A model generated the notes under the pieces. That model had not been told where the DNA came from. It did not search any database and saw only the letters and a program-made list of their open reading frames with translations. This document shows, one piece after another, positions 208-13,358 of a stretch of DNA of 38,153 bases. Numbering within the stretch: position 1 is the stretch's first letter; each line of letters begins with the position of its first letter. Source of the DNA: a virus; the IMG/VR virus record IMGVR_UViG_3300005600_000052, positions 1-38,153 of that record; one strand, given 5' to 3'. Made by a program: the position numbers and the translations under genes.

Positions 208-347
208 AGGTTTAATAACCTGGAAAGACCCTTAAAAACCCTTAGAACATGCCCACTTCCAAGGGTTTCCAATTATCAGACCCCGGAGGCCGAGGTTTCA
301 TAACTTTTGGGCTCTGCCCCCGGAAAATGGCAAAGGTTTGATAAACT
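208..347. repeat. Three direct copies of a 14-bp motif (candidate transposase end sites)
   Basis: The motif AGGTTTNATAAMYT occurs three times in the same orientation: 208-221 (AGGTTTAATAACCT), 293-306 (AGGTTTCATAACTT) and 334-347 (AGGTTTGATAAACT). The last two lie in the 3' part of the DnaA-like gene. Mu-type phages carry several MuA-binding sites at each end, and Mu sites contain a related GTTTCA core, so these may be end sites. The phage terminus itself cannot be fixed from this window. Confidence 0.4.
231..268 (-). terminator. Candidate terminator after the DnaA-like gene
   Basis: On the minus strand an 8-bp stem (261-268 paired with 236-243, AAACCCTT/AAGGGTTT) with a 17-nt loop ends in a short T run (238-234), just past the stop of the DnaA-like gene at 276. 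The loop is long and the T run is partly inside the stem, so this is a moderate call. Confidence 0.4.
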
Positions 348-698
348 TTCGGGGGTCATGAAGGCGGTCTGCAGGGTTGTTGCAGGCATTCTGCCAGCTA
401 TCTGCACCCAGGCGCTGATCTCGTGCTCTATGGCCTGGATTTGGGCCGCAAATCGGGGTTCCAGGGCGATGCGGGTGGATATCAGCTTAGTGGCGTGGTG
501 GGAGGAGTGGGCGTGCATGCCGAATCGCTCGGCGGTATAGGTGTGGCCTCTTTCGGTGTGTTTGGCGATCAGATACATTGCCACCTGGCGGGGGACACAT
601 ATGTGGGCCAGTTTGGTGTTGCGGAATACCTCACAGGGGGCCAATCCGAAGTGTTCAGAGACGGTATTGATGATCTTTTCTGTTAGATATTTGACCAT
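276..698 (-). CDS. DnaA domain IV-like DNA-binding protein, candidate late activator
   Basis: 140 residues. The middle of the protein matches the DNA-binding domain IV of DnaA: a PRQVAMYL block, then an FG-containing turn and a recognition-like helix (FGMHAHSSHHATKLI) in place of the usual GGRDHTTV. There is no AAA+ ATPase domain, so it is not a replication initiator by itself. The start is the first ATG (698). Upstream in-frame reading requires a TTG and would run through a terminator hairpin. Position is informative: it is the last leftward gene, isolated from the early operon by that terminator. In Mu the activators Mor and C sit at the ends of the early and middle transcripts, so I infer a regulatory role for late genes. 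Two of the three 14-bp repeats overlap its 3' end. Confidence 0.7.
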   Translation of the reverse strand: MVKYLTEKIINTVSEHFGLAPCEVFRNTKLAHICVPRQVAMYLIAKHTERGHTYTAERFGMHAHSSHHATKLISTRIALEPRFAAQIQAIEHEISAWVQIAGRMPATTLQTAFMTPESLSNLCHFPGAEPKSYETSASGV

Positions 699-705
699 TT
701 CAAAG

Positions 706-733
706 AAAAAGCCGAGCTGTTTTGCTCGGCTTT
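706..733 (-). terminator. Rho-independent terminator of the early operon
   Basis: A perfect 10-bp stem, AAAGCCGAGC (708-717) with GCTCGGCTTT (724-733) and a 6-nt loop, is followed on the minus strand by TTTTTCTTT. It lies between the small zinc-ribbon gene and the DnaA-like gene and should end leftward early transcription. The plus-strand side also has some T residues, so weak bidirectional function is possible. Confidence 0.75.
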
Positions 734-752
734 GGTTTGCCAAAATTGTCTT

Positions 753-3784: not shown

Positions 3785-3969
3785 GCTTGTCCTTTCTGCC
3801 TGGTTCTGGAATTGGCTGGACAAACGAGGTTCCACAACCACCGCCACAAACGCACCGGCCACGATGCGCCTCCACGTTTGGGCTTGTGGTTGCTTGAATT
3901 GATATGCCGACGGACTGGTCGCACATACGTGCGCTTGGGCTCGGCTACCCACTTCGGATTGGCAATCAT
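3781..3969 (-). CDS. Small basic protein, 62 aa
   Basis: 62 residues with many Arg and Lys (KPKRGG, RPVRRH) and a Trp-rich stretch (WPVRLWRWLWNLV). It is supported mainly by context: ATGA overlaps at both ends (3966-3969 with Gam, 3781-3784 with gp16-like), as for its neighbours. It could bind nucleic acid or sit at the membrane surface. No family recognised. Confidence 0.45.
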   Translation of the reverse strand: MIANPKWVAEPKRTYVRPVRRHINSSNHKPKRGGASWPVRLWRWLWNLVCPANSRTRQKGQA

Positions 3970-4478
3970 GCTGCACCCTCCTTTCTCATTTTGGGTTTGG
4001 GTTCGATGACAAACTTCTGATCGTCAACCAGGCGCACCCCGATGTTTTGCCACTCGCGCTTGTTGGTCTTCTTCATGTCGTTTTTGATCCGCTCCTTGTC
4101 GAGCGTTGGTTCGTGGCGTAGCAGCCCGGCCAGATTTGGCATGCTTTGGATTCGCTCCAACACCTTGCCCCATGTCCAGGAAGTCATGGGCTTGAGGACA
4201 TCCGGAGTCTTGCGTAACTTGTAAAACGCCATTCCGGTTTCCCCCCGCTTCGCCTCCTTTGAATCGGATCCAAAAACTTTTGCCGGATACTTTTTGGCAA
4301 ATCTCTCCGCTGCTTTCGTCTTATTGGATGCCGTTTTTTTAAGTCCATCCAGCAACGAGGCATATCGTTTTTGGACTCTGGCCAACTCGTTCTTCAAAAG
4401 GGTTTCCGCAAATTCCAATTGCTGCATTGCGATTGCGGCCTCATCCACCGCCTTTTTAAATTCATCAATCGTTTTCAT
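3966..4478 (-). CDS. gam: Mu Gam-like host-nuclease inhibitor
   Basis: 170 residues, the normal Gam length. The N-terminal 60 residues are a coiled coil (MKTIDEFKKAVDEAAIAM), then a beta-rich part (GETGMAFYKLRKTPDVL), then the C-terminal helical segment with LDKERIKNDMKK and the end strand GVRLVDDQKFVIEPKPK. This order matches phage Mu Gam, which binds double-stranded DNA ends and shields them from host RecBCD-type exonucleases; it is a bacterial/phage relative of Ku. Its position between MuB and gp16 agrees with Mu. It overlaps the 99-aa gene by ATGA (4475-4478). Confidence 0.8.
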   Translation of the reverse strand: MKTIDEFKKAVDEAAIAMQQLEFAETLLKNELARVQKRYASLLDGLKKTASNKTKAAERFAKKYPAKVFGSDSKEAKRGETGMAFYKLRKTPDVLKPMTSWTWGKVLERIQSMPNLAGLLRHEPTLDKERIKNDMKKTNKREWQNIGVRLVDDQKFVIEPKPKMRKEGAA

Positions 4479-4990: not shown

Positions 4991-6073
4991 TCAGGTCCAC
5001 TCCTTTTCTGGGTTGCTGTTGCTTTCGATGATCAAGTGAGCATTCAAGAAGTGCGTCCAGGTCAACTTGCCACCGTTGCGCTTGCTTAGTTTGGTGCCGT
5101 AGCGCATCCGCTCCGTGATCGCCTTGAGACCGTCATGACGAGCCAGCGAGTTGACCACCTCACGCGGCGACCTGGTCCAGGATTGATCCTTGATCCGGAT
5201 CTCCACCGTCTCGCCCCTGTCCGGCAGCTCCAGCCCCTGGCTTTTGAGCAGAGCCTTGACATCCCAATGACTCGGCATCACCCCAAGCTGCGTGCGATGC
5301 ACACCGCGCCGGAACAACTGCTCCAGCTCCCCGTTGCGATGCTGCTGGAACTTCTCCACACCCAGATTGGTGAAAATGAAAACCATTCCACACTGCGCCT
5401 CGTCGTAGAGATAGCGCAGCGTCTCCACGCAATTGAAATAATTGACCTTCGTGTAAGTGTGGGTCAGCAAATGCACCTCATCGAAAATCATGATCGTGTT
5501 CGGAGTAAGCCGACCGACAATCTCATCCAGCAACTGCTCTTTGGTGTGAGATGTATCCAGGCCGAACTGAGCGGCGATCAGATTCACCACAGCCTTGACC
5601 CCGCTTGATGGGCGCAACCTCACATACACCGTGCGGCTATCCCGACGCTTGCGCATATACTCAGCGCACGCCGTTGTTTTGCCGATATGAGATGCCCCGC
5701 TTAGGAAGACCGGCGTGCGAGACTCACGCGCCAGATCCAGGGCATTCCAGATTTTGCGAGCCGTTGCCGTCTCCACAAATGAGGACTCGCCATACAGCGA
5801 ACGCTCCTCCTCCAGGCGGCGAAACTCACGCGCCCCCTTGATCAACTTCTCGGGCAACGGCAGCGGATTGGATGACCCCTGAGCCACATACCGACCCGTG
5901 AACACCTTGTAGACCGTGTTATCCGAGACGCCCACCTGGCGGCAGAAATCTTCAAACGAGATGTTTCGATCCTGACACCATTGCCAACACCACAACAGGA
6001 CCTCTTGATCCTCGCTCGCGCCGTGATTTATATTGCGCTCCAGCTCCGCGCGTTCTATTTTCCATCCGTGCAT
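4991..6073 (-). CDS. MuB-like AAA+ ATPase, DNA transposition protein B
   Basis: 360 residues. N-terminal helix-turn-helix (about 38-62: ISFEDFCRQVGVSDNTVYKVF), as in MuB. A Walker A motif GASHIGKT at about 126-133 and a Walker B IMIFDEVH at about 194-201 mark the ATPase core. MuB binds target DNA non-specifically as an ATP-dependent filament, brings it to the MuA transpososome, stimulates strand transfer and gives target immunity. Two ATGs are possible: at 6082 a GAAAGG touches the start codon, while for 6073 the same GAAAGG is about 8 nt away, so 6073 is preferred. Length is slightly above Mu B (about 312 aa). Confidence 0.9.
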   Translation of the reverse strand: MHGWKIERAELERNINHGASEDQEVLLWCWQWCQDRNISFEDFCRQVGVSDNTVYKVFTGRYVAQGSSNPLPLPEKLIKGAREFRRLEEERSLYGESSFVETATARKIWNALDLARESRTPVFLSGASHIGKTTACAEYMRKRRDSRTVYVRLRPSSGVKAVVNLIAAQFGLDTSHTKEQLLDEIVGRLTPNTIMIFDEVHLLTHTYTKVNYFNCVETLRYLYDEAQCGMVFIFTNLGVEKFQQHRNGELEQLFRRGVHRTQLGVMPSHWDVKALLKSQGLELPDRGETVEIRIKDQSWTRSPREVVNSLARHDGLKAITERMRYGTKLSKRNGGKLTWTHFLNAHLIIESNSNPEKEWT

Positions 6074-6089
6074 TTTCTGCATCCTTTCA

Positions 6090-6641: not shown

Positions 6642-6887
6642 TCATTTTACTATTTCACCGTTCCCATTGACGGTGACGCTTTCTCCACTCCCTTGATCGA
6701 TGCCAATTTGGTATTCGATCCACTCCCGCTTGACCGCTATCTCCAGACCATCCTGGAGCCTGATTCGGACAAACGATCCATTCACCTTGACCACATCCCC
6801 GGTGGCCCGGTCCTTGCAATACGGATTCCCCGTCACCCGAGAAATCACCGAGTCCCCGATCCGCAGATTGTTGACCGCCTCATTCAT
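6642..6887 (-). CDS. Small beta-rich protein, 81 aa, after the transposase
   Basis: 81 residues with alternating strands suggesting a small beta-barrel (LRIGDSVISRVTGNPYC, GDVVKVNGSFVRIRL), like KOW/SH3-type folds. The start at 6887 has a strong upstream GGAGGT at about 7 nt and overlaps the 3' end of MuA by 8 nt. The frame is open to 6983 but is then antisense-like nonsense. A small DNA- or protein-binding accessory factor is possible. Confidence 0.6.
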   Translation of the reverse strand: MNEAVNNLRIGDSVISRVTGNPYCKDRATGDVVKVNGSFVRIRLQDGLEIAVKREWIEYQIGIDQGSGESVTVNGNGEIVK

Positions 6888-8946
6888 GATCCACCTCCAA
6901 CAAATCACTCGCATCCAAACCAGAAACCTGTCCCGATTCCCGGTAGACCTCCGGTTCCTGATCCCCCAAAAGATCATCCGCATCCAGCCCCCGAGCCGCC
7001 TTGGAGTCCAGATCCTTGACGTGTTTCTGAATCACGCGACCGTTGCGCAGAGCCAGGTTGCTGGACTCACCACCCGACCTGGAAACCAACTCAGCGATCG
7101 ACTCGCGATAGATATTCTCTTTCTTGCCGTGCATCCGGTGGATCGCATCCAAGTCGTGTGCATAGACAGAAGACCAACGCTCACACGCACCCACAAAAAC
7201 GCCACGAGCATCCACCACCAGCATCTGGTCAGTGTTGAAGGGATTCACGCATGTGCTGAACTTCTGACCATTGGGAAGCAACTCATCGAACCCAGCCGCA
7301 TCCTTCACACGCGCCAGATACCGAAACTTATCCGGTCCCAACTCCGCGTCCTCGAACTCAAACAACCGATTCCGCACCGTGCGCTCTACAAAACAATCCG
7401 AAGGCAACAACGAAGCCAACCCGGCAGCATTCAGCCGCTGCGTCTGCCCCTTGACCGTGGTCAAAGCCTCTGCAGGGGAGAACGGACGCATGCGGGAACA
7501 CTCCGCATCCTCAGCCAGGATCATCTCCATCACCTCCCGACGCTCCGGAGACAAGTTCTCCAACTTCGAAAGTGGCAACCAAAGATCCGTCCCCGAATCC
7601 ACACGGAACTCCCGACGCACCAAACCAGCCTTCTCCCACCCCTCATTCGAATGATTCGTCCGATCATTGATCCGTCGATACGTCTCCAGGATCACCGTGC
7701 GCGCCTGGTCTAAAGTCAGAAAAGGGAAACTCAATTTGTCAGCCAACTCCGGGTGAGCGGCCACGATAAGAGCCAATTCATCACTCGCCTTATTGCGTCC
7801 AAAATTTTCCAGCGGCATATGATCCCGATTCATGCCCACCTGACCAGGCAGACAAGCAAGCTCGTTATGGACCAAATTCCCAAGCCCCTCCTTGAGAGCT
7901 TTGAAACGCGGATTCCCTTTGCCCTTTTCCCCATACCCACCACTCACCGCTGGTCGCCCACTCATTGCCCCTGTGCGTACCGTGACCAGACCGTTGGTCA
8001 CTTTGTGAAGCCGCTCTTCAAAGTCTTTGTTTACAGCAGCGGTCCCATTCTCAAGGATCAGCGCCGTGCCATCCTTGTGCCAACCGATGTCCGTCAAGAA
8101 CCAGAGCAGGTAGAAGATAAAATCCTTCTTGTTTAAATACTCCGTCTTATCCGTTGCAATGTTCTTTAAACGCGGTTTCAGACCAGGGTTAAACAAATAG
8201 GTAGTGAACATGTCCACCGCTCCGAACTGCACCAAACGGCTGCTACCCCTTTGCCCCATGCGGATCACCTCGAAGTCATGCCACATGTCATCAAACTGCA
8301 CCTCCATGAGCGGGTAAGACCCCACCCGAGTCCGGTGCACCGTCGGCAACGTCAACGAAGCCGCAAACCGTCCCCGGCGCATCGCAGCAAACTCCGTGTC
8401 CGTTGGCGCATGCCTGAGAAGATTCTCATAGCTCCACCCATCCGGATGATTGCAGCCGGCGGCGTTGGGCGGTGGGGCATCATACCCCGGTATAGGGCAT
8501 GCCGAACCCGAACGCCACCGGCAAAGCTGTTCCATTAGCGCAGACCACGCAGGCCGGATCTTCCGCTGATACTTGTCGCAAGACTGCCGCCAGTGCACCA
8601 GGAATGCCTTGGGCAACTCCCGTTTGCGCCCCTGCCATGCAGTCGGCACATGACGCTTATCGATCAACACCCGGTAATCCTTCCCGGCATTGATCCACTT
8701 GCGATAAATCTGGTAAACCGAATTCACCTTTTGCCCATACACCTTGGCCACCTCCATCGCAGCCTTGCGAGATCCACCCAAACCATCAATCTCCCGCATC
8801 CAGCGCAACCTCACAAAATACCGATCACGCGCCGTAGTGCCCAACTGTGCCAACACCTCCACAGGCGCATCCTGGACAACACTTGTCACAACAACGTCAC
8901 CTACAGACTCGGACACAGCAGATCGTATGGGGTAAGGTGCAATCAT
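6880..8946 (-). CDS. MuA-like DDE transposase
   Basis: 688 residues (Mu A is 663). About 38-100: helix-turn-helix region for end or enhancer binding (KAAMEVAKVYGQKVNSVYQIYRK). About 212-360: RNase H-like catalytic core with D219/D220 (MEVQFDDMW), then E299 (LILENGTAAVNK) at the place of the second catalytic Asp, then E353 (FKALKEGLGNLVHNE) at the place of the catalytic Glu. The C-terminal 300 residues correspond to the beta-barrel (Mu-C) and MuB-contact regions, ending in acidic DADDLLGDQEPE and DASDLLEVDHE. It pairs phage ends, nicks them and joins them to target DNA. The Glu at the second site is odd: either a clade feature or an inactivating change. It starts 3 nt after the end of the preceding minus-strand ORF. 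Confidence 0.92.
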   Translation of the reverse strand: MIAPYPIRSAVSESVGDVVVTSVVQDAPVEVLAQLGTTARDRYFVRLRWMREIDGLGGSRKAAMEVAKVYGQKVNSVYQIYRKWINAGKDYRVLIDKRHVPTAWQGRKRELPKAFLVHWRQSCDKYQRKIRPAWSALMEQLCRWRSGSACPIPGYDAPPPNAAGCNHPDGWSYENLLRHAPTDTEFAAMRRGRFAASLTLPTVHRTRVGSYPLMEVQFDDMWHDFEVIRMGQRGSSRLVQFGAVDMFTTYLFNPGLKPRLKNIATDKTEYLNKKDFIFYLLWFLTDIGWHKDGTALILENGTAAVNKDFEERLHKVTNGLVTVRTGAMSGRPAVSGGYGEKGKGNPRFKALKEGLGNLVHNELACLPGQVGMNRDHMPLENFGRNKASDELALIVAAHPELADKLSFPFLTLDQARTVILETYRRINDRTNHSNEGWEKAGLVRREFRVDSGTDLWLPLSKLENLSPERREVMEMILAEDAECSRMRPFSPAEALTTVKGQTQRLNAAGLASLLPSDCFVERTVRNRLFEFEDAELGPDKFRYLARVKDAAGFDELLPNGQKFSTCVNPFNTDQMLVVDARGVFVGACERWSSVYAHDLDAIHRMHGKKENIYRESIAELVSRSGGESSNLALRNGRVIQKHVKDLDSKAARGLDADDLLGDQEPEVYRESGQVSGLDASDLLEVDHE

Positions 8947-10689: not shown

Positions 10690-11040
10690 TTATGCGTCCT
10701 CGAATAATTGGGTTTGATGTTTCTCGACCTCGCGCTTGGTCGCGATGGCCGCTTGCAGCTCGCCTGCCAAGGTCATGAGCTGCGTTAAAGTCAGTTTGGA
10801 AAAACAAGTCTCCTTGAAAGGTGCCGTCATCCGGCTGCGGATAAATTCACGGTAGGCCTCAATTGGCACTCGGTAAGACATGCGTGTTTCCACCGAACGA
10901 CTCCCATTCACGCTTACCAACTCCCCACACTCGATCAGGCCAATCACATGTTCCGGCGTATATCGCAACTTGTTGGCGATATCATTCACCGTGAGCGTGG
11001 TGCGCCCTTGGAAATCAAGTGATGGGAAAGGAAGGCTCAT
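10690..11040 (-). CDS. Helix-turn-helix regulator (excisionase/MerR-like fold)
   Basis: 116 residues. Residues about 15-60 form a winged HTH of the excisionase/MerR type: LTVNDIANKLRYTPEHVIGLIECGELVSV, then SYRVPIEAYREFI. The C-terminal part is a helical region (LTQLMTLAGELQAAIATKREVEK) suited to dimerisation. It begins 2 nt after the stop of the 56-aa RHH regulator, so both are the first products of the leftward operon, the position held by Ner in Mu. Confidence 0.65.
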   Translation of the reverse strand: MSLPFPSLDFQGRTTLTVNDIANKLRYTPEHVIGLIECGELVSVNGSRSVETRMSYRVPIEAYREFIRSRMTAPFKETCFSKLTLTQLMTLAGELQAAIATKREVEKHQTQLFEDA

Positions 11041-11042
11041 GG

Positions 11043-11213
11043 TTAGTTGTTCAGAACAATGGTCCCACGTTCGATATCAGGGAGCACTTGAATGATAGCG
11101 AATCGAATGACACTGCTGTTATTCGATCCCATCCTGTTTGCCGCTTTTTCGAGCCTCCGAATGGTTTCTCCATCCAGTCTCACCGGCACAGGTTTGGTTT
11201 TCTTTGTTTTCAT
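11043..11213 (-). CDS. Ribbon-helix-helix regulator, 56 aa (leftward partner of the switch)
   Basis: 56 residues: a basic N-terminus (MKTKKTK), the DNA-contacting strand PVPVRLDGET, helix 1 (IRRLEKAANRMG), then SNNSSVIRFAIIQVL as helix 2. This is the Arc/CopG ribbon-helix-helix fold at its minimum size; such proteins bind DNA as dimers with the strands in the major groove. It is clearly related to the divergent RHH protein at 11300: the PxPVRLDxETIxR block and the A-x-RMG-x-VI pattern are shared. First gene of the early operon, about 4 nt from the predicted transcription start, so it may be read from a nearly leaderless message. Confidence 0.8.
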   Translation of the reverse strand: MKTKKTKPVPVRLDGETIRRLEKAANRMGSNNSSVIRFAIIQVLPDIERGTIVLNN

Positions 11214-11223
11214 CGTGTGCACT

Positions 11224-11251
11224 ACTGTATATCACTGGTATACGATGTCAA
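11224..11251 (-). promoter_or_regulatory. Leftward early promoter
   Basis: On the minus strand a consensus -35 TTGACA (11251-11246) is followed after 16 bp by TACAGT (11229-11224). Initiation would be near 11217, only a few bases before the ATG at 11213. One copy of the 12-bp repeat lies in the spacer. Confidence 0.6.
11236..11247. promoter_or_regulatory. Operator-like repeat, copy 1
   Basis: TGGTATACGATG, identical to the copy at 11283-11294, with a palindromic GTATAC core. It lies within the spacer of the leftward promoter. Read leftward, a second TATAC-A half-site follows one helical turn (11 bp) away (TATACCAG then TATACAG), the spacing expected for two RHH dimers side by side. Confidence 0.6.
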
Positions 11252-11261
11252 CAGAAAAAAA

Positions 11262-11291
11262 TTGATTTGCTAAACCTTTTTTTGGTATACG
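11262..11291 (+). promoter_or_regulatory. Rightward promoter for the second RHH regulator
   Basis: TTGATT (11262-11267), an 18-bp spacer and TATACG (11286-11291). Initiation would fall at about 11298, so the GTG start at 11300 would be essentially leaderless. An alternative, TTGTTT (11204-11209) with TATATC (11228-11233), also has 18-bp spacing and would give a leader. Confidence 0.4.
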
Positions 11292-11294
11292 ATG
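11283..11294. promoter_or_regulatory. Operator-like repeat, copy 2
   Basis: The second exact TGGTATACGATG, 47 bp from the first, covers the -10 element of the rightward promoter. Each divergent promoter is therefore covered by one copy. Confidence 0.6.
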
Positions 11295-11299
11295 CAGGC

Positions 11300-11638
11300 G
11301 TGGCGAGGACATCACCAATACCTGTTAGGCTGGATGAGGAAACCATTCAGCGCATAGACAATGCAGCATCACGCATGGGAAACACCCGTGCCGGTGTGAT
11401 TAAGTTGTGTCTGCAATCTTTCCTTGAATCCTTTGAAAAAAAGGGGGCTGCTTCGTTGCCGCTCGATTGGCAAGATATTTTGGACTCACTTGATGGTAGA
11501 ACAGTAAGTTCCAGAGAAATCAATTCCGAGCCAAGTCAAGCAGTGCAGGATGCTTTGAAGGAGGCGGCACAAGGAGTGGCAAACTACGTTCAAAACAAGA
11601 ATGCGAAAAAGCGTCGCGCAAAGACACCCAAGTCTTAA
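11300..11638 (+). CDS. Ribbon-helix-helix regulator, 112 aa (candidate lysogeny repressor)
   Basis: 112 residues from a GTG start. N-terminal RHH domain: strand SPIPVRLDEET, helix IQRIDNAASRMG, then NTRAGVIKLCLQSFL. A C-terminal extension of about 65 residues (LPLDWQDILDSLDG, then QAVQDALKEAAQG, then a basic KKRRAKTPK tail) could serve oligomerisation or an anti-repressor. It is the paralogue of the 56-aa protein facing it. Single gene, divergent from the early operon, longer form: the layout of a phage repressor. The frame is open upstream to 11138, but that stretch covers the operators and has no RHH features. Confidence 0.75.
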   Translation: MARTSPIPVRLDEETIQRIDNAASRMGNTRAGVIKLCLQSFLESFEKKGAASLPLDWQDILDSLDGRTVSSREINSEPSQAVQDALKEAAQGVANYVQNKNAKKRRAKTPKS

Positions 11639-12455: not shown

Positions 12456-13358
12456 ATGAAAAAAACTCGAACACTGGAATTCTCCATCATCAACATCAAA
12501 TTGCAGCCTCGAACGCCTGATAGAACTGGCAAATACATCAAATTGATGAAACTTGCTGCGGAAAACCGTCAAAGCGTACCGGTTCATGGCCCAAGACATG
12601 GATGCATAAATTCAGCATACATTGAGGAACGTTTTGAAAAAGAAGTAGTCACTGGTGAATTGGTGACATTCACAAATATTGACACTGATGGAGCTTGGCA
12701 CAATGTCATAACTGGAAAAGAGGCGGATCCAACGGCAGTTGAAAAAGTGAAAGATCCACTTAGGAATCTACAACCGGATCGAAAGACGTTTCGTTATTTC
12801 TTCTATCCAGAGGACCACGTTATGATCTACTTGTCTAAGAATCGCACTTCTAGATTAACTCCAAATCAAGCAGTTTGGCTTTTAAAAGAAGTCCTTAACA
12901 CCGAAGAAATGCGTGCGGCACTTCAAGTTCGAACAATCGAAGTTCAAGCTATGACCGATGCCCAACAAATTCTGGATGTTTTTTCTGAATACAAAGTCAA
13001 CTACCTTCATGTGGATTTCACCAAACCAAACGACAGTTCATCGGACATTGGAAAATCAATTGAGGAAATATTCGAAGAGGAGCACGTAAAAAGAGAGGAG
13101 ATTAAAAAGTGGGCAGATGAAACAGGAAGTATCCAACCCAACGAACAAACCAAAAAACTAATTGAAGCTGGTGCCAAAGACGGAAAGGTAGAGATAAGAG
13201 CCAAGGATGATGATGGAGAAAAGAAAACATTCAATACACAGAAAATGCCAATTGTGGAGCAGGTTCAATATTCAGTAGATTATCCATTGTTCAATTTTTG
13301 TTTTGAAAAAGCCGACAAAATGCTCGAAAAATATGTCAAGAAAACCAACCCTAAATGA
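12456..13358 (+). CDS. DUF4747-like cytosolic protein, accessory module
   Basis: 300 residues, no signal peptide. The N-terminal 200 residues (KTRTLEFSIINIKL at 3-16; FRYFFYPEDHVMIYL around 112-126; SRLTPNQAVWLLKEVLN around 132-148) recall the DUF4747 family, a soluble family of unknown function scattered among bacteria and prophages. I assign it from memory of the pattern only. The C-terminal 100 residues are Lys/Glu-rich and helical. It overlaps the following membrane protein by ATGA (13355-13358), so the two are made together. The DNA is AT-richer than the late operon. A sensor/effector pair for phage exclusion is an inference from this layout. Confidence 0.6.
   Translation: MKKTRTLEFSIINIKLQPRTPDRTGKYIKLMKLAAENRQSVPVHGPRHGCINSAYIEERFEKEVVTGELVTFTNIDTDGAWHNVITGKEADPTAVEKVKDPLRNLQPDRKTFRYFFYPEDHVMIYLSKNRTSRLTPNQAVWLLKEVLNTEEMRAALQVRTIEVQAMTDAQQILDVFSEYKVNYLHVDFTKPNDSSSDIGKSIEEIFEEEHVKREEIKKWADETGSIQPNEQTKKLIEAGAKDGKVEIRAKDDDGEKKTFNTQKMPIVEQVQYSVDYPLFNFCFEKADKMLEKYVKKTNPK

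What the first reader, a model, noticed from the sequence alone, without database searches (positions are those of the whole stretch)
11043..11638. Lysogeny switch made of two paralogous ribbon-helix-helix proteins
A 56-aa RHH protein (minus) and a 112-aa RHH protein (plus) face away from each other across 86 bp. They share PxPVRLDxETIxR and the following helices, so they arose by duplication. Lambda-type and Mu-type switches use helix-turn-helix repressors; a CI/Cro-like pair built from two RHH paralogues at the head of a transposable phage would be a new switch design. The C-terminal extension of only one partner suggests different roles.
Basis: partly seen in the sequence, partly recalled or inferred. 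Interest (0 to 1): 0.75.

Follow-up and report, generated by a model that had tools for sequence, protein, structure and literature searches.

The report
Paralogous RHH-pair lysogeny switch
A Mu-like phage of the Verrucomicrobiota-associated kind carries, exactly where its relatives keep their usual helix-turn-helix lysogeny switch, two small related DNA-binding proteins of a different fold (ribbon-helix-helix) facing apart over a shared control region, and the same design recurs in about twenty related phages, so switches seem to be swapped as whole cassettes between protein folds.

Summary
A 56-aa (11043-11213, minus) and a 112-aa (11300-11638, plus) RHH protein diverge across 86 bp and are 44% identical over 45 residues (E=8e-14). 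AlphaFold2 gives the short one a confident RHH-like two-helix model (pLDDT 90). New evidence: among 61 phages/prophages with related MuA-like transposases, 50 carry HTH and 11 RHH regulators at this slot; the tree needs at least 8 changes of type. Twelve further divergent RHH pairs were found separately. The tailed RHH protein lies divergent from the transposition operon (repressor slot); the short one heads that operon (Ner/Cro slot). The intergenic DNA carries a TTGAC -35 toward the short gene (15/22, 2.5 expected), palindromes near that promoter (combined P about 8e-10), and often a second half-site at the long gene's start. Best reading: long = lysogeny repressor, short = Cro/Ner/Arc-like early repressor. 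DNA binding, repression and lysogeny are inferred, not shown. Verdict: new variant of a known kind.

The parts
11300..11638 (+). Long RHH protein (112 aa, GTG start): proposed lysogeny repressor (c/CI/Mnt-like); RHH domain about residues 4-47, then a C-terminal tail with motif LPxxWQDxxxSLDxRT and a Lys/Arg-rich end
   Evidence: orthologue L094 788-1054, E about 1e-19 including the tail motif; sits in the slot of HTH repressors of relatives
11043..11213 (-). Short RHH protein (56 aa): first gene of the early/transposition operon, proposed Ner/Cro/Arc-like early repressor
   Evidence: AF2 pLDDT 90; Foldseek and PDB-sequence relatives are RHH proteins
11214..11299 (.). Divergent control region (86 bp)
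   Evidence: compared with 21 other RHH cassettes
11224..11251 (-). Candidate early promoter: TTGACA (11251-11246), 16-nt spacer, TACAGT (11229-11224), directed at the short gene and the transposition operon
   Evidence: 10 of 12 consensus matches; the scan itself is near chance level; TTGAC toward the short gene is present in 15 of 22 RHH cassettes against 2.5 expected
11227..11243 (.). Imperfect palindrome GTATATCACTGGTATAC in the promoter spacer: candidate operator O1
   Evidence: not significant alone (P=0.19), but its position matches strong palindromes in relatives; combined P about 8e-10 over 22 cassettes
11236..11247 (.). TGGTATACGATG, copy 1 of a 12-bp exact repeat (overlaps O1)
   Evidence: shuffle P=0.0025, none of 18 cross-phage comparisons as good
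11283..11294 (.). TGGTATACGATG, copy 2, ending 5 bp before the long gene's GTG: candidate operator O2; it also reads as an extended -10 (TGGTATACG) for the long gene with TTGATT at 11262-11267 (inferred by eye)
10690..11040 (-). HTH_17-like gene following the short RHH gene; a homologue lies between the Ner-slot gene and the transposase in all 11 RHH loci first surveyed and in most HTH relatives checked: marker that the slot is equivalent
6880..8946 (-). MuA-like transposase (688 aa), too divergent for Pfam/PHROGs
   Evidence: (profile matches Mu transposase 4fcy, E=1e-4)
4991..6082 (-). MuB-like ATPase
   Evidence: phrog_296 DNA transposition protein, E=9e-32
3966..4478 (-). Mu Gam-like protein

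Best explanation
The pair and its 86-bp control region are the lysis-lysogeny switch of a Mu-like transposable phage. In the lysogen the long, tailed RHH protein (11300-11638) would bind half-sites (TGGTATAC-type) in the spacer of the early promoter and block the operon that starts with the short RHH gene and includes the transposase, MuB and Gam. A second copy of the half-site at its own promoter and start would let it regulate itself. After infection or induction the early promoter fires; its first product, the short RHH protein, has the same predicted DNA-contact residues (Pro-Pro-Arg in the strand) and would occupy the same sites, shutting off the long gene and later damping the early operon, as Cro, Mu Ner and P22 Arc do. 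SHOWN: fold family, paralogy, layout, slot equivalence with HTH switches, recurrence, repeated half-sites and palindromes near the early promoter. INFERRED: binding, direction of repression, role of the tail, lysogeny of this particular phage.
For: Slot: relatives with the same transposase carry an HTH repressor (some with S24 domain, as L005) divergent from a small HTH gene heading the early operon; in the window and 10 others the slot proteins are RHH. Exclusivity: no HTH_3 protein anywhere in the window record, nor in RHH records G011, G017, G021, G030; Pfam scans of the other early and mid genes found no other repressor. RHH hits in the phage records fall at the slot, except two inside long overlapping frames. 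Recurrence: 10 cassettes found through the transposase, 12 more through the short protein; 7 of the latter are linked to the same transposase. Operators: same half-site at the early promoter and at the long gene's start, better than shuffles (combined P=9e-8, 10 cassettes); palindromes near the early promoter, combined P=8e-10 over 22. Specificity: cassettes whose short protein has contact triad F-(G/A)-W carry at least two TTTAAC; this was predicted before looking and held in 3/3 held-out cassettes. Prophages: G297 and G130 carry the RHH pair next to TnpA and late phage genes inside larger bacterial contigs.
Against: No binding, expression or induction data. The window's own palindrome is weak (P=0.19). 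Of the predictions made before looking, (L/M)-T-W with GGTGTA failed (0/2) and GGTGTA also occurs with other triads, so the residue-to-operator rule holds for one class only. In L037/L038 the long gene is broken and in L025 its tail ends at a stop codon, so some carriers may no longer make a functional repressor. L008 has an additional double-HTH protein directly after its short RHH gene, so not every RHH phage relies on RHH proteins alone. The window is a viral contig; its own integration was not seen.
Confidence: 0.8

Rival explanations
1. Arc/Mnt-like secondary switch: the RHH pair controls an antirepressor-like early function while an unrecognised repressor elsewhere holds lysogeny.
For: P22 immI has exactly this layout and is secondary to the HTH pair c2/cro. 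L008 carries both an RHH pair and a double-HTH protein.
Against: The RHH pair sits in the primary slot where relatives have their HTH switch; no HTH_3 protein in the window or in several other RHH phages; the gene after the short RHH is an HTH_17-like gene, not an antirepressor.
Confidence: 0.1
2. Both RHH proteins are only early-operon regulators (autoregulators of transposition genes) in a phage that no longer forms lysogens or does so without a classical switch.
For: Broken or truncated long genes in L037/L038 and L025; lysogeny of the window phage itself is not demonstrated.
Against: RHH phages are found as prophages in bacterial contigs (G130, G297); the long gene is kept in nearly all cassettes with its own tail and promoter region.
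Confidence: 0.07
3. The pair is a toxin-antitoxin, partition or relaxosome-type RHH module unrelated to the switch.
For: Many RHH proteins are antitoxins or partition/relaxosome proteins (Foldseek lists such).
Against: Both partners are RHH, divergent and not in one operon; no toxin or ParA/relaxase neighbour; strict placement at the HTH-switch slot in many genomes.
Confidence: 0.03

Closest known systems
Salmonella phage P22 immI: Mnt/Arc (BK000583)
   Same: Divergent pair of paralogous RHH repressors (47.5% identity over 40 aa; window pair 44% over 45), long 83 aa and short 53 aa, 90-bp intergenic region, short gene first in its operon, Arc operator inside the arc promoter with its centre about 15 nt after the promoter's TTG (window: 16.5 nt).
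   Different: Secondary immunity region controlling an antirepressor in a phage whose primary switch is HTH (c2/cro); no specific sequence kinship with the pairs found here (profile score about 0 bits); here the pair heads the transposition operon.
Bacteriophage Mu c/Ner early switch
   Same: Repressor gene divergent from an operon that begins with a small DNA-binding early repressor and includes transposase A, B and Gam-like genes (Mu layout from own knowledge).
   Different: Mu c and Ner are HTH-type proteins (own knowledge); here both are RHH paralogues. Most relatives in this phage group use HTH proteins at the slot.
SSV1 F55 (archaeal virus RHH lysogeny regulator)
   Same: RHH repressor of 55 aa that keeps early genes off in the carrier state, binds repeated short sites in early promoters and in its own promoter (PMC9608457).
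   Different: Single protein described as unique to SSV1, repeated 11-nt sites, archaeal virus; no paralogous partner at a divergent promoter is described there.
Lambda CI/Cro
   Same: Logic: two related DNA-binding proteins competing for shared operators between divergent promoters (own knowledge).
   Different: HTH proteins; CI has a cleavable C-terminal domain; no S24/LexA-like domain in the RHH long protein.

Membership tests
Ribbon-helix-helix (RHH/CopG/Arc/MetJ fold) proteins | N-terminal strand followed by two helices; sequence profile match | tested here: met
   Pfam RHH_1 E=5e-4 and 5e-3 (sub-threshold); profile hits RHH structures; AF2 H15-28/H32-48 preceded by an extended stretch; P0002 model low confidence, pLDDT 54, same helix order
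Ribbon-helix-helix (RHH/CopG/Arc/MetJ fold) proteins | Intertwined dimer with two-stranded sheet in the DNA major groove | not testable with these tools
   Only single-chain prediction is on hand
P22 immI (Mnt/Arc) switch | Divergent paralogous RHH pair, long and short, about 90 bp apart | tested here: met
P22 immI (Mnt/Arc) switch | Operator centred between -35 and -10 of the short gene's promoter | tested here: inconclusive
   A palindrome lies there in the window and many relatives, but binding is untested
P22 immI (Mnt/Arc) switch | Sequence homology to Mnt/Arc beyond the fold | tested here: not met
   hmmsearch of the RHH-cassette profile: Arc 0.4 bits, Mnt -0.3 bits; hhalign probability 8% and 0.3%
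P22 immI (Mnt/Arc) switch | Short gene followed by an antirepressor (ant) | tested here: not met
   The next gene is HTH_17-like
Mu-type transposable phage early region | Transposase A, AAA+ ATPase B and Gam in one operon, with a divergent repressor | tested here: met
   MuB phrog_296, Gam, transposase matches MuA 4fcy
Mu-type c/Ner switch | Repressor and Ner are HTH-type proteins | tested here: not met
   No HTH_3 in the record; both slot proteins are RHH

The most novel reading that the evidence does not exclude
In one group of Mu-like phages of Verrucomicrobiota and neighbours, the primary lysogeny switch is a plug-in cassette (two regulators plus their operators) that has been replaced as a unit between unrelated DNA-binding folds, HTH pairs and RHH pairs, at least eight times at the same genomic slot, while the circuit logic (larger repressor divergent, small early repressor first in the operon) stays the same.
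Probability: 0.75. Interest if true: 0.7.

Novelty: new variant of a known kind. Interest (0 to 1): 0.6.

Why it matters
It suggests that the logic of a lysogeny switch can be kept while its protein fold is exchanged, and it offers a natural series of about 22 RHH cassettes, with varying contact residues and half-sites, for testing how RHH proteins choose DNA and how immunity specificity changes. It also gives a sequence signature for recognising temperate phages that standard HTH-repressor searches would call repressor-less.

Tried and rejected
Close relatives of P0002 by sequence in the viral and phage collections: none; the transposase was needed as an anchor. The rule GGTGTA = (L/M)-T-W triad was proposed from 3 cassettes and failed on held-out data. 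A single-sequence fold of P0002 gave pLDDT 54, and its fold search (permuted single-chain Arc first, E=0.9) is only consistent, not evidence. An RHH hit in L009/G007 and one in L020/G015 lie inside long frames overlapping other genes and were set aside. Paper searches for an RHH primary switch in Mu-like phages found none in the open-access library; the phiKZ/phiEL repressor remark in PMC3564109 concerns other phages. Direct origin from P22 Mnt/Arc rejected on sequence.

Full report
OBSERVATION. They are 44% identical over 45 residues (E=8e-14). Pfam RHH_1 matches both just below its cut-off, and PHROGs lists RHH/Arc-like repressors. A profile of the pair with its relatives finds NikR, CopG, PutA and VapB among solved structures. 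AlphaFold2 with 15 sequences gives the short protein pLDDT 90 with helices 15-28 and 32-48; the nearest PDB folds are RHH proteins, including Arc, though with weak Foldseek E-values. P0002 folded alone is low confidence.

CONTEXT. The record is an IMG/VR virus contig. Minus-strand early operon: short RHH, HTH_17-like gene (10690-11040), further genes, a 688-aa transposase (6880-8946), a MuB-like ATPase (4991-6082), Gam (3966-4478); plus strand: long RHH, then late genes with TerS, TerL, portal, protease and tail genes. The transposase has no Pfam or PHROG match, but a 12-member profile hits Mu transposase 4fcy (E=1e-4). Relatives occur in 40 of 388 genomes sampled from the phylum of a Puniceicoccaceae (Verrucomicrobiota) genome.

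SLOT EQUIVALENCE. The first relatives found (L003, L004, L005) have at the same place an HTH repressor, some with an S24 domain, divergent from a small HTH gene that heads the early operon. With Pfam searches over whole records and home-made RHH and HTH profiles over upstream regions, 61 loci with a complete enough transposase were classified: 50 HTH, 11 RHH (window, L008, L013, L022, L025, L026, L028, L035, L037, L094, L110). A homologue of the HTH_17-like gene lies between the switch and the transposase in all 11. In a quick maximum-likelihood tree of the transposases the switch type changes at least 8 times, all 8 forced by starred branches. The window's sisters L003 and L007 are HTH; the phage with the closest RHH pair, L094, groups with HTH phages L089/L090 elsewhere. 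L094's long protein shares the window's tail motif LPxxWQDxxxSLDxRT (E about 1e-19), so the cassette appears to move independently of the transposase.

MORE CASES. Searching with the short-protein profile gave 12 further divergent RHH pairs (L118, L120, L121, L124, L128, L131, L132, L133, L134, L135, L136, L149), seven with the same transposase on record. In the intact pairs the partner with the C-terminal tail (about 78-185 aa in all, usually Lys/Arg-rich) is divergent from the early operon, and the short one (about 55-75 aa) heads it. Exceptions: the tail is cut by a stop codon in L025, the long gene is broken in L037/L038, and L122, L138 and L139 show only the short protein.

CONTROL REGION. 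TTGAC directed at the short gene is present in 15 of 22 intergenic regions (2.5 expected; 1 on the other strand), and palindromes near that promoter are stronger than in shuffles (combined P about 8e-10); in most cassettes the palindrome centre lies about 15-20 nt after the TTG, that is, in the -35/-10 spacer. Examples: L094 ACATGGTATAAAGCTGTTATACCATGT, L008 AACGACTTTAACTCAGTTAAAGTCGTT, L149 CTAAGTATAAACTGAGTATATACTTAG. Many share a CTNAG centre (10 of 22, 2.6 expected). A second copy of the half-site often lies at the long gene's start (within-phage repeat, combined P=9e-8); in the window it is the exact 12-mer TGGTATACGATG at 11236 and 11283. The window's own palindrome (11227-11243) is weak alone.

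SPECIFICITY. The three outward residues of the strand (by alignment with the RHH fold; inference) are P-P-R in both window proteins and in L094's long protein; both phages use TGGTATA. F-(G/A)-W short proteins go with at least two TTTAAC: 5/5 at discovery and 3/3 in held-out cassettes predicted beforehand (notebook, result). The parallel prediction for (L/M)-T-W and GGTGTA failed, so a general code is not claimed.

MECHANISM. Most likely the long protein represses the transposition operon in the lysogen and regulates itself, and the short protein, made first after derepression, turns off the long gene and damps early expression. Shown: layout, fold, paralogy, recurrence, sites. Inferred: binding, repression, lysogeny. 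RHH prophages do exist with TnpA and late genes in bacterial contigs (G130, G297).

KNOWN SYSTEMS. P22 immI has divergent paralogous RHH repressors: mnt (83 aa) and arc (53 aa), 90 bp apart, Arc operator inside the arc promoter (roles in PMC7549136 and PMC11016777). It is secondary to c2/cro, ends in an antirepressor, and shares no detectable sequence kinship with the pairs here. SSV1 F55 is an RHH lysogeny repressor of an archaeal virus (PMC9608457). So neither an RHH repressor nor an RHH pair is new; an RHH pair as the apparent primary switch of transposable phages, exchanged with HTH switches at one slot, was not found in the literature searched (open-access only).

LIMITS. Motifs were first picked by eye; the tree is a quick one; classification rests partly on home-made profiles; the window's own lysogeny is not shown; no binding data.

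Noticed in passing
6880-8946 (minus) and L003-L110 transposases: MuA-like transposase family without any Pfam or PHROG match; in a 12-member alignment the acidic positions D219/D220, E299 and E353 are invariant, which may mean a D-E-E rather than D-D-E active site.
   Followed up: partly
276-743 (minus): Protein of 155 aa with a DnaA C-terminal DNA-binding domain (PF08299, E=2.6e-12) near the far end of the early region.
   Followed up: no
12456-13358 (plus): DUF4747 protein (E=6e-41) in the late-strand segment just after the switch; phrog_10040.
   Followed up: no
L008:7719-8222: A protein with two HTH domains directly follows the short RHH gene, so this phage has both regulator folds.
   Followed up: no
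L044:4651-5517: An insertion-sequence-like transposase gene lies at the place where the repressor gene is expected.
   Followed up: no
L025:7763-7954 and L037/L038 about 8168-8266: Long RHH gene ends at a stop codon at the start of the tail (L025) or is broken after the strand (L037, identical in L038).
   Followed up: partly
L141-L147: Verrucomicrobiota-phylum genomes hold proteins related to the window's long RHH protein (strand like LPVRLD, then an LPxxW-like motif in several); no divergent RHH partner was seen in the short flanks fetched, so the phage cassette may be kin to chromosomal RHH regulators.
   Followed up: no
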